64,000 bases of DNA, taken from NCBI GenBank assembly GCA_016182905.1, contig JACPFR010000027.1, positions 1-64,000 of the forward strand, in the 5' to 3' direction. Shown in pieces: positions 11,827-41,463 of this stretch; position 1 is the first letter of the stretch, and the number at the start of each line of letters is the position of its first letter. The notes below the pieces were generated by a model. It ran no database searches, was not told where the DNA came from, and worked only from the letters and a program-made list of their open reading frames with translations. The position numbers were made by a program, and so were the translations under genes. The DNA comes from Elusimicrobiota bacterium (GTDB lineage: Bacteria > Elusimicrobiota > Elusimicrobia > UBA1565 > UBA9628).

Positions 11827-12990
11827 ATGGCGACTGTTTCCGGAAACAGCCGCCGGTCCGGGAGACTCGCGCCGGCGCGAGTCTTCTTCGCGTTCGCGGC
11901 GCTGGGGCTGGTCGCGCCGGCGCCCGCGCAGGTCCTGACTCGGGTCCAGACGGGCGCCGTCCCGGTCCCGGGCCTCTCCGCTCCGGCGCTCGTCGCGCCC
12001 GCCGGCCTCCGGTCCCCGGTCCTCGCTCTGTCCGCCCCGTCCCTGGCGCCGGCCTTGGCGGCTCCCGCCGTCGCGATCCCCGCGCCGGTCGCCGTGCCCG
12101 CCGCCCTGCGTCCGTCCGCCGTTCCGGCCGCGCCCGAGCGCCCGAACCCTCTCGGCCAGCTGCGCGCCGCGCTCGTCGACTGGCTCAAGCCCGGCGTCGC
12201 CCCGTCCGATGACTCCGTCGCGGCGCCGGTCTCCGCCTACGTTCTCGACCTCGACGGCAACGCCTTCGGTCCCGGCTTCCCGACGAAGATCATCCTGTTC
12301 AAAAAAGGCGGCGACCAGGAGCTTCCCGTCCCGACCGCCCGCTTCGCCGTGATCGAGAAGAGCATCGGCGCGGACTTCGCCTACGGCGGCGTCAACCTCA
12401 GGGACTACGAGCTGCGCGGCGACGCCTCGTTCCGCGAGTTCTTCGGCCCGAAGTTCGCGGCCGACCTCAAGCACGCGGTCGAGAACCTTCCCGCCTCCGA
12501 GTGGCAGGGCCCGAGCTGGGGAGCGCTGGTCCGCGCGCTCAACGACCCTGTCCTCGCCGCTCACACCTACGTGCTGACCGCGCGCCAGCACACCTCCGAG
12601 CAGCTTCTCGACGGCTTCCGCTACCTCCAGTCCGCCGGCTACATCCGCTATCTGCCGAAGGTCGAGAACCTCCACGGCGTCGGCGGCACGCGCCGCACCG
12701 CGGAGCGCAAGGCCGAGCTGATGGCGGAGTTCATCGACGCCCTGCAGGCGTCGCCTCTCGGCGCGGACGGCGGCCGTCACGCCATCGGCTTCTCCGACGA
12801 CACCTGGGCGAACTTCGAGAAGATGCGCGACGCGCTGACCGCGATCATGCGCCGGGAGCCGGGACGCTGGAGCAGGGTCAAGATCGTCCTGTTCTTCACG
12901 GGCTCGAACGATCTGTCCCATAGGCCCGAGGCAATCGTGCTCGAGGGCGACGGGACGACGCGGCCTTATCTGCCGGGCGAGCCGCGCTAG
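11827..12990 (+). CDS. Exported HAD-like hydrolase
   Basis: 387 residues, starting 5 nt after the aminopeptidase stop. An N-terminal leader (signal segment ARVFFAFAALGLVAPAPAQ) is followed by a Pro/Ala-rich linker to about 115. The remaining domain shows HAD-superfamily landmarks: VLDLDG (motif I-like), YVLTAR (Thr of motif II) and GFSDDTWANF (motif IV Asp pair). HAD enzymes are usually phosphohydrolases using an Asp nucleophile; substrate unknown. The first codons overlap the palindrome at 11829-11854, so a hairpin forms at the very start of the mRNA coding region. No other plausible start precedes the signal segment. Confidence 0.8.
   Translation: MATVSGNSRRSGRLAPARVFFAFAALGLVAPAPAQVLTRVQTGAVPVPGLSAPALVAPAGLRSPVLALSAPSLAPALAAPAVAIPAPVAVPAALRPSAVPAAPERPNPLGQLRAALVDWLKPGVAPSDDSVAAPVSAYVLDLDGNAFGPGFPTKIILFKKGGDQELPVPTARFAVIEKSIGADFAYGGVNLRDYELRGDASFREFFGPKFAADLKHAVENLPASEWQGPSWGALVRALNDPVLAAHTYVLTARQHTSEQLLDGFRYLQSAGYIRYLPKVENLHGVGGTRRTAERKAELMAEFIDALQASPLGADGGRHAIGFSDDTWANFEKMRDALTAIMRREPGRWSRVKIVLFFTGSNDLSHRPEAIVLEGDGTTRPYLPGEPR
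11829..11854. repeat. Palindrome family copy 1 (26 bp, one mismatch)
   Basis: Perfect core CTGTTTCCGGAAACAG at 11834-11849; the arms extend to GGCG/CGCC with one A/C mismatch pair. It begins 8 nt after the aminopeptidase stop codon. The same core occurs at 41436-41463 and at the insertion-sequence target (22163-22171 plus 23689-23707). Confidence 0.9.
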
Positions 12991-22171: not shown

Positions 22172-22255
22172 ATAATCATCTAGAGGTCCCCTCCCCGGGT
22201 TGTGTAGTGTTCGGTTTCCAAGACGGACACAACAAACCCAAGGAGGGAACAACTG

Positions 22256-23275
22256 ATGAAATTATACGCGGCAATCGACCTGCATTCCAACAACAGCGTG
22301 TTGGTGATCTTGGACGAGCGAGATCGCGTCATATACGAGCGGCGCTTGCCAAACGAGCTGCCGGCGATCTTGAACGAGCTCAAGCCGCACCGCAAAAAGG
22401 TCCAGGGCATCGCCGTGGAGTCGACGTACAATTGGTATTGGCTCGTCGATGGTCTCATGGATGCAGGCTATAGCGTCAAGCTGGTCAACACCGCGGCGGT
22501 CAAAAAGTATGACGGTATGAAGTATTCGGGCGACGAGCACGACGCTCGACATTTGGCCCACCTGCTGCGCCTGGGCATCCTGCCGACAGGCTACATCTAC
22601 CCGAAGAAAGAGCGGGCCGTGCGCGACCTGCTGCGCAAGCGCGCCCAGTTGGTGCGTTGTCGCACAGCTCAGATCCTGAGCATTCAAAATCTGGTCACCC
22701 GCAACAGCGGCCATGGGATTGCAGCCAATGATATCCGTGATCTTGATGAAGGGGCGCTCAAAGAACTTTGCGGCGGCAACCAGATGCGGGCGCTGGCCGT
22801 GCAAGGCAACCTGACGGTTCTGCGCTGCCTTGATGAGCAAATCCACGCTCTCGAGCTCGTCGCGCTCAAGCAGGCAAAGCTCAAGCCTCAGTTCGAGAAG
22901 CTTTTGTCGGTCGACGGCATTGGGAATATCCTGGGCATGACCATCATGTACGAAGCCGGGGATATGGAGCGCTTCGCGAAGGTGGGGCAGTTCGCTTCGT
23001 ACGCGCGCTGCGTGAGCAGTTCCCGCTGGAGCAACGGCAAGAAGAAGGGCGAAGGCAACCGCAAGAACGGCAATAAGTATTTGTCGTGGGCCTTCATGGA
23101 GGCGGCCAATTTCGCCATTCGCTACAACGAGCGCATCCGGACTTTTTATCAGCGCAAGCAATCCAAGACCCATCGGATCGTGGCGCTCAAGACAGTGGCT
23201 CATAAATTGGCGCGCGCCTGTTACCACGTGCTCACGGATCAGGTCGAGTTCGATTTAACGAGGGCCTTTGCATGA
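22256..23275 (+). CDS. IS110-family DEDD transposase
   Basis: 339 residues; ATG preceded by AAGGAGGG. RuvC-like DEDD domain: AIDLHSNN (Asp7), GIAVESTYNW (Glu), and GDEHDARHLA (Asp pair). The C-terminal Transposase_20-type part has LLSVDGIGNILGMTIMYEAG (helix-hairpin-helix) and a Ser-rich CVSSSRWSNGKKKGEGN block expected to hold the catalytic serine, then KNGNKYLSWAFMEAA. Length and order are normal for the family and the gene is intact. IS110 enzymes use an RNA encoded in the element's own non-coding end (bridge RNA) to choose target and donor DNA. Confidence 0.95.
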   Translation: MKLYAAIDLHSNNSVLVILDERDRVIYERRLPNELPAILNELKPHRKKVQGIAVESTYNWYWLVDGLMDAGYSVKLVNTAAVKKYDGMKYSGDEHDARHLAHLLRLGILPTGYIYPKKERAVRDLLRKRAQLVRCRTAQILSIQNLVTRNSGHGIAANDIRDLDEGALKELCGGNQMRALAVQGNLTVLRCLDEQIHALELVALKQAKLKPQFEKLLSVDGIGNILGMTIMYEAGDMERFAKVGQFASYARCVSSSRWSNGKKKGEGNRKNGNKYLSWAFMEAANFAIRYNERIRTFYQRKQSKTHRIVALKTVAHKLARACYHVLTDQVEFDLTRAFA

Positions 23276-23283
23276 TTGATTTA

Positions 23284-23600
23284 GGTGGAGCAGATGAGCT
23301 CGGCCGGAAACTGGAATAACCTAGGCGACTGATTAGCCGCCTGCTCCACCGTCGTTTTAAGCGAGACGCCTCGGCCGTGAGCCACGGGAGACTGGATCGA
23401 TGAGAATCGAAGCCAAGAAACTGTGGGCGGCGTAAGCCGCCAAATATTGGACATGGCAGGGTACTAACGGTTTTCTGGGCCCTCGAACGAGGGCAGGGGC
23501 TCGGCAGCGTATCGCCGAAGCCTTGATCCTGATGAGTGTTTGGTGCGGCCTCGTGCCGATGCCATAGAAAAGAGAACCCGGACGCGTGGACGCTGAAACG
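23284..23600 (+). ncRNA. Candidate bridge RNA in the right end of the insertion sequence
   Basis: Non-coding and rich in pairing. GGTGGAGCAG (23284-23293) pairs perfectly with CTGCTCCACC (23341-23350). Hairpins follow at 23426-23441 (GGCGGC/GCCGCC) and 23479-23494 (GCCCTC/GAGGGC), and TCGGCA (23501-23506) pairs with TGCCGA (23554-23559). The first loop contains CCGGAAAC (23304-23311), complementary to the right half of the target, and CGACTG (23326-23331), identical to the left half. The later loop holds ATGAGTG (23532-23538), identical to the element's right end plus core. Boundaries are estimates. Confidence 0.6.
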
Positions 23601-23688
23601 GCGGCAAGGAAGTGGAAGGACAACGGACAACCACACAACCTGTGGCAGGGACGCTATTGCCTATTGACGCGGAAACCTCTAATGAGTG

Positions 23689-41435: not shown

Positions 41436-41463
41436 GCCCGACTGTTTCCGGAAACAGTCGGGC
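41436..41463. repeat. Palindrome family copy 3 (28 bp, perfect)
   Basis: Arms GCCCGACTGTTTCC and its exact reverse complement, with core CTGTTTCCGGAAACAG. It lies 22 nt past the stop of the minus-strand cupin gene. Nearly identical to the restored insertion-sequence target. Confidence 0.92.

What the first reader, a model, noticed from the sequence alone, without database searches (positions are those of the whole stretch)
23284..23600. Candidate bridge RNA with loops matching target and donor DNA
Downstream of the transposase, a 10-bp perfect stem (23284-23293 with 23341-23350) encloses CCGGAAAC, complementary to the target right half GTTTCCGG, and CGACTG, identical to the target left half including the TG core. 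A later loop, closed by TCGGCA/TGCCGA, contains ATGAGTG, identical to the element's right terminus plus core. IS110-family elements use a bridge RNA with separate target and donor guide loops, so this is the arrangement expected for an RNA-guided recombinase reprogrammed to a palindrome. Matches are short (6-8 nt), and the target is palindromic, which raises chance matching. The second donor guide (complement of ATAATC) was not found.
Basis: partly seen in the sequence, partly recalled or inferred. Interest (0 to 1): 0.88.

Follow-up and report, generated by a model that had tools for sequence, protein, structure and literature searches.

The report
IS1111 bridge RNA targeting a palindrome
A small jumping gene in an Elusimicrobiota genome carries a guide RNA next to its transposase whose loops spell out both the DNA site it jumps into and its own end, and in 34 related elements that spelling changes together with the site; it is a well-supported natural example of a recently discovered class of RNA-guided recombinase.

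Summary
The finding is real. Window 22172-23688 is a 1517-bp IS1111-type IS110-family element. Its downstream noncoding region has a target-binding loop (TBL, 23275-23359) and a donor loop (guide 23532-23538). A covariance model built without the window finds the TBL at 60.9 bits (E 2.6e-20); its stem has compensatory changes. Across 34 related elements the right target guide pairs with its own right flank at 7.06 of 8 positions (3.29 when flanks are swapped; 0/20,000 permutations); the left guide matches its own left flank (0/20,000). Two additions: (1) each loop carries two further bases from the partner DNA (AT = left end; TT = right flank), which also covary: handshake guides in mirror image to IS621, implying bottom-strand-first exchange. 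(2) The target is a dispersed 20-bp palindrome, 20 exact copies in this genome, with an uninterrupted copy at the syntenic site of a sister genome. New member of a known kind (IS1111 seekRNA/bridge RNA). RNA expression and transposition could not be tested.

The parts
22172..23688 (+). whole IS1111-type element, 1517 bp, right end counted with its TG core
   Evidence: ends fixed by covarying subterminal repeats, guides and a syntenic empty site in a sister genome
22163..22171 (.). left part of the target palindrome, CGCCGACTG, ending in the TG core
   Evidence: copies elsewhere in the genome
23689..23707 (.). right part of the target palindrome, TTTCCGGAAACAGTCGGCG
22181..22187 (+). left subterminal inverted repeat TAGAGGT
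23675..23681 (-). right subterminal inverted repeat (ACCTCTA on +)
22256..23275 (+). IS110-family DEDD recombinase, 339 aa
   Evidence: Pfam and NCBIfam NF033542; predicted fold matches IS621 and ISCro4
23275..23359 (+). target-binding loop (TBL) of the bridge RNA
   Evidence: covariance model built without the window, 60.9 bits, E 2.6e-20
23284..23293 (+). TBL stem, 5' arm
   Evidence: compensatory changes
23341..23350 (+). TBL stem, 3' arm
   Evidence: compensatory changes
23304..23311 (+). right target guide (RTG) CCGGAAAC, complementary to core G plus TTTCCGG
   Evidence: covaries with right flank
23326..23331 (+). left target guide (LTG) CGACTG, including the core
   Evidence: covaries with left flank
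23332..23333 (+). handshake bases AT of the target loop, equal to the first two bases of the left end
   Evidence: covary (AT/AA/AC/AG)
23360..23600 (+). donor-binding part of the RNA, predicted multiloop
   Evidence: consensus fold with compensatory pairs
23532..23538 (+). left donor guide (LDG) ATGAGTG, identical to the right end plus core
   Evidence: covaries (ATGAGTG/ATGGGTG/ATGGATG)
23539..23540 (+). handshake bases TT of the donor loop, equal to the first two bases of the right flank
   Evidence: covary with right flank, 1.88/2 vs 1.13, 0 of 20,000 permutations
23664..23669 (+). TTGACG, -35 box of the promoter that forms when the ends join (with GATAAT across the left end, spacer 18)

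Best explanation
The region is the bridge RNA (seekRNA) of an IS1111-type element. Shown by sequence: the RNA has a target loop whose 5' guide complements the right target top strand and whose 3' guide complements the left target bottom strand, and a donor loop matching the element's right end; these vary with the insertion site from element to element. Inferred: transcribed from the promoter formed when the ends join in the excised circle, the RNA is bound by the transposase and brings circle and target together at the shared TG core. Each loop also holds two bases from the partner molecule, so the target loop carries the product junction target-left|core|left-end and the donor loop carries right-end|core|target-right, both pairing with bottom strands. 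By analogy with the IS621 handshake this suggests that bottom strands are exchanged first. Here the guides are set to a dispersed palindrome, which gives many equivalent sites in the host.
For: Guides versus own flanks over 34 elements: RTG 7.06/8 against 3.29 permuted, LTG 3.77/6 against 1.84, both 0 of 20,000. Repeated with model-defined columns: 6.96 vs 3.38 and 3.45 vs 1.85, 0 of 100,000. TBL model without the window finds it at E 2.6e-20. Stem: 97.3% standard pairs, 8 pairs changed on both sides, 0/500 shuffles. Handshake bases covary. Circle-junction promoter in 28 of 29 elements examined. Empty site with uninterrupted palindrome in G209. Recombinase fold matches IS621 and ISCro4 bridge-RNA complexes. 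Guide order and position as published for IS1111 (PMC11187229).
Against: No RNA or transposition data. The left guide is the weaker match in some elements (L003, L029 and L077 match 1-2 of 6 outside the core). L032, L004, L007 and L080 miss one of two donor-loop handshake bases. No right donor guide could be proved. The catalytic S/T-G motif of known enzymes is S-N-G here. The order of strand exchange is inferred, not shown.
Confidence: 0.94

Rival explanations
1. The loop matches are chance, helped by the palindromic target, and the structured region has some other role such as regulating the transposase mRNA.
For: In this window alone single matches are short; 73, 3 and 38 of 1000 shuffles reach them. 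A palindrome makes same-sense and complementary matches equivalent.
Against: Relatives with different, mostly non-palindromic targets show the same relation at the same loop positions; all three window matches together occur in 0 of 1000 shuffles.
Confidence: 0.02
2. Target choice is by protein recognition of a folded palindrome, and the RNA matches are a by-product of flanking DNA captured by imprecise excision.
For: This target and several others in Elusimicrobiota are hairpins (L001, L003, L026, L033, L038, z about -2 to -5). IS1111 relatives are known to use REP and attC sites.
Against: Only 6 of 29 joined targets fold unusually well, yet guides match flanks throughout. The matching bases sit about 400 bp from the ends, in two strand senses and at fixed loop positions, which capture of flanks would not produce.
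Confidence: 0.03
3. The bridge RNA is real, but the two partner bases are not handshake guides; they match because the core-proximal target bases are constrained for another reason.
For: AT after the left target guide is nearly constant in Elusimicrobiota, and the left end is too uniform there to test (1239 of 20,000 permutations). Functional handshake is known only for IS621.
Against: The donor-loop bases covary strongly in the Elusimicrobiota set (1.94/2 vs 0.91, 0 of 20,000), and the target-loop bases covary over the whole set (AT, AA, AC, AG). The donor loop is otherwise almost invariant.
Confidence: 0.25

Closest known systems
IS1111-family seekRNA systems (ISEc11, ISKpn4, ISPa11; Siddiquee et al. 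2024, PMC11187229)
   Same: Long noncoding region downstream of tnp, subterminal inverted repeats, top-strand-complementary guide 5' of the bottom-strand one, guides overlapping at the insertion point, end-joined promoter in the circle; ISPa11 also targets a repeated palindromic element
   Different: Different host phylum and target; recombinase has S-N-G in place of the S/T-G motif; two partner bases in each loop, not mentioned in the sections read; right subterminal repeat partly degenerate in this copy (7 bp)
IS621 bridge RNA (IS110 group; Durrant et al. PMC11208160, Hiraizumi et al. PMC11208158)
   Same: Two-loop RNA with left and right guides for target and donor, shared core dinucleotide, handshake bases 3' of the second guide of each loop, same protein fold
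   Different: RNA at the right end, not the left; guide order reversed; handshake bases would pair with bottom strands instead of top strands; donor part is a multiloop, as Durrant et al. note for many IS1111 elements

Membership tests
IS110 family (DEDD recombinase) | DEDD_Tnp_IS110 and Transposase_20 domains | tested here: met
   Pfam E 1.2e-14 and 5.3e-18; NCBIfam NF033542 IS110 family RNA-guided transposase, 179.6 bits over cut-off 140
IS110 family (DEDD recombinase) | acidic residues of the RuvC-like domain conserved | tested here: met
   D8, E55, D93 and D96 invariant in 16 relatives; their assignment to DEDD is by position, from knowledge of the family
IS1111 group | subterminal inverted repeats of at least about 7 bp inside short terminal extensions | tested here: met
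   TAGAGGT/ACCTCTA 7 bp here, up to 13 bp in relatives, varying in step
IS1111 group | longer noncoding region downstream of tnp | tested here: met
   413 bp downstream against 84 bp upstream
IS1111 group | GL-P----S(T)G motif in the C-terminal domain | tested here: not met
   S259-N260-G261 with no matching proline; N260 is invariant and aligns with the S of the SG motif of IS621. Filed as IS1111-type on RNA and ends, not on this motif
IS1111 seekRNA/bridge RNA | top-strand guide 5' of bottom-strand guide, matching both sides of the target | tested here: met
IS1111 seekRNA/bridge RNA | conserved RNA secondary structure | tested here: met
IS1111 seekRNA/bridge RNA | two donor guides | tested here: inconclusive
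   left donor guide covaries; right donor guide not proved
IS1111 seekRNA/bridge RNA | RNA expressed, bound by the transposase and required for transposition | not testable with these tools
   needs small-RNA sequencing and a transposition assay
IS1111 seekRNA/bridge RNA | promoter formed by joined ends in the circle | tested here: met
   TTGACG-18-GATAAT at the joined ends; circle itself not observed

The most novel reading that the evidence does not exclude
IS1111-type bridge RNAs carry handshake guides in mirror image to IS621: the two bases after the left target guide and after the left donor guide spell the recombinant bottom-strand junctions. IS1111 would therefore exchange bottom strands first, and retargeting it well would require changing two donor-loop bases as well as the target loop.
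Probability: 0.55. Interest if true: 0.65.

Novelty: new member of a known kind. Interest (0 to 1): 0.5.

Why it matters
It gives comparative evidence, from 34 natural elements with different targets, that an IS1111 clade uses a programmable RNA. It also yields a concrete rule that can be tested at the bench: two donor-loop bases follow the target. The only solved structures that match this recombinase with confidence are IS621 and ISCro4, so evidence on how IS1111-type enzymes exchange strands is useful. It further shows such an element set to a host's dispersed palindromes, a strategy known for ISPa11 and IS621, here in Elusimicrobiota.

Tried and rejected
Rfam has no matching family (only a chance hit). 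The viral collection gave no relative. GGTTTTC (23469-23475) as right donor guide: 4-7 of 7 pairs in most elements but no covariation (6926 of 20,000 permutations as high), and it sits in a predicted helix with one compensatory change; not adopted. Automatic left-end calls for L040 were wrong and are not used as evidence. A general preference for hairpin targets was tested and is limited to part of the Elusimicrobiota set. The guide table was curated by hand, so the test was repeated with model-defined columns.

Full report
Observation. The bases described are present at the stated coordinates: the stem GGTGGAGCAG/CTGCTCCACC, the CCGGAAAC and CGACTG loops, and the later ATGAGTG. Extending the matches, CGACTGAT equals the left flank|left end junction and ATGAGTGTTT equals the right end|right flank junction. 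Taken one at a time they are weak (73, 3 and 38 of 1000 shuffles reach them); together none of 1000 does. So the window alone could only suggest the answer.

The element. The ORF 22256-23275 is an IS110-family recombinase whose predicted fold matches the IS621 and ISCro4 bridge-RNA complexes. The element runs from 22172 to 23688, with the core TG at each boundary. A sister genome (G209, L085) has the same two neighbouring genes, no element, and an uninterrupted palindrome AACTGTTTCCGGAAACAGTC between them. Two other genomes (L084, L086) keep the gene order but lack the palindrome. There is one copy in the host genome. Subterminal inverted repeats of 7 bp here, and up to 13 bp in relatives, vary in step at both ends. 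Joining the ends would create TTGACG-18-GATAAT; a TTGA box at a spacing of 16-18 bp is seen in 28 of 29 elements examined.

Relatives. The phylum search gave 15 of 341 genomes with a match at E<=1e-60, the own genome included, and the genome collection gave 23 loci. Plasmid records added nine loci.

Covariation test. For each element I recorded the flanks and the loop bases. The right target guide pairs with its own right flank at 7.06 of 8 positions, against 3.29 when flanks are exchanged between elements (34 elements, 0 of 20,000 permutations). The left guide matches at 3.77 of 6 positions outside the core against 1.84 (31 elements, 0 of 20,000). Because that table was curated by hand, I repeated the test with guide columns set by a covariance model: 6.96 vs 3.38 (26 elements) and 3.45 vs 1.85 (22 elements), 0 of 100,000 each, and the same after dropping three near-duplicate programmes. 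Within the Elusimicrobiota subset alone the right-guide value is 7.25 vs 3.46, again 0 of 20,000.

Structure. A TBL model built from 13 relatives without the window finds the window segment at 60.9 bits, E 2.6e-20. The TBL shows 97.3% standard pairs and 8 pairs with changes on both sides, and no shuffle or slid register is as high. The full region folds with 82 predicted pairs, 28 of them with compensatory changes, and a donor multiloop, as Durrant et al. describe for many IS1111 elements.

Partner bases. Two bases follow the left target guide and equal the first two bases of the left end (AT, AA, AC or AG according to element). Two bases follow the left donor guide and equal the first two bases of the right flank (TT, AC, GC, CG, CC, TC or AG). 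Both covary across elements (1.94/2 vs 1.56 and 1.88/2 vs 1.13; 0 of 20,000). In the Elusimicrobiota set the donor-loop pair is strong (1.94 vs 0.91), while left ends are too uniform there to test the other. In IS621 such handshake guides follow the right guides and pair with top strands. Here they follow the left guides and would pair with bottom strands. By strand symmetry the whole arrangement is that of IS621 seen from the other strand, so bottom-first exchange is the natural prediction; this step is inference. The held papers that I read do not describe it for IS1111, but subscription papers and preprints are not in the library, so it may be known.

Target. GACTGTTTCCGGAAACAGTC occurs 20 times exactly in this genome, with no copy of the reversed control, and in 6 of 19 genomes of the genus. 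Half-sites bring the number of places to about 55. Sampled copies look intergenic by eye, but this was not tested. Some Elusimicrobiota relatives are likewise set to repeated hairpins, such as CGACACTACGCTGTCG, with 1-7 copies in each of six of the ten genomes searched. Targeting of repeated palindromes is known for ISPa11 and IS621.

Limits. There are no expression or activity data, the right donor guide is unresolved, and the S-N-G motif departs from the S/T-G motif of characterised enzymes. NCBIfam already names the family RNA-guided, so the class itself is known. What is added here is the comparative proof for this clade, the mirror handshake and the palindrome target.

Noticed in passing
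L044 2519-2604 and 2638-2721 (G148:C62): Two tandem target-binding loops with different guides (58.5 and 75.1 bits). The left flank and its core fit the first loop (GGTCGTG), while the right flank, right-end core and donor-loop bases fit the second (GCTTTCCT, CG, GC): probably a natural recombinant of two elements, and a possible route to retargeting.
   Followed up: partly
window 11832-11851, 41440-41459, and genome-wide: A family of dispersed palindromes GACTGTTTCCGGAAACAGTC (20 exact copies), plus two other families often close by: GACTCGCRCCGGYGCGAGTC (9 copies) and ACTATCCTNNAGGATAGT (8 copies). The genome also encodes 5 Y1-transposase-domain proteins, so a REP/RAYT-like system is possible; origin and function unknown.
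   Followed up: partly
window 23030-23038 (S259-N260-G261 of the recombinase): The catalytic S/T-G motif is replaced by S-N-G in this clade (N260 invariant in 16 of 16, S259 in 15, T in L007). N260 aligns with the S of the SG motif of IS621, so the nucleophile may be shifted by one residue.
   Followed up: partly
L041 (G224:C71): Element with an internal deletion of the transposase gene (about 161 residues left) but an intact bridge RNA and both ends; perhaps mobilised in trans.
   Followed up: no
L033 right end (G134:C109): The right end lacks AGTG (ends ...CTAATG instead of ...CTAATGAGTG), yet the right flank CCGCGAGA still matches its right target guide and donor-loop bases CC.
   Followed up: no
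target loops of L001, L002, L025, L040, L045 versus L026, L027, L033, L039: The right target guide starts pairing with the flank either directly next to the TGG hairpin or one base further away; the one-base shift between elements is unexplained.
   Followed up: no
L084, L086 (G206, G196): At the syntenic locus these genomes have the same gene order without the palindrome, so palindrome copies themselves come and go between close relatives.
   Followed up: no
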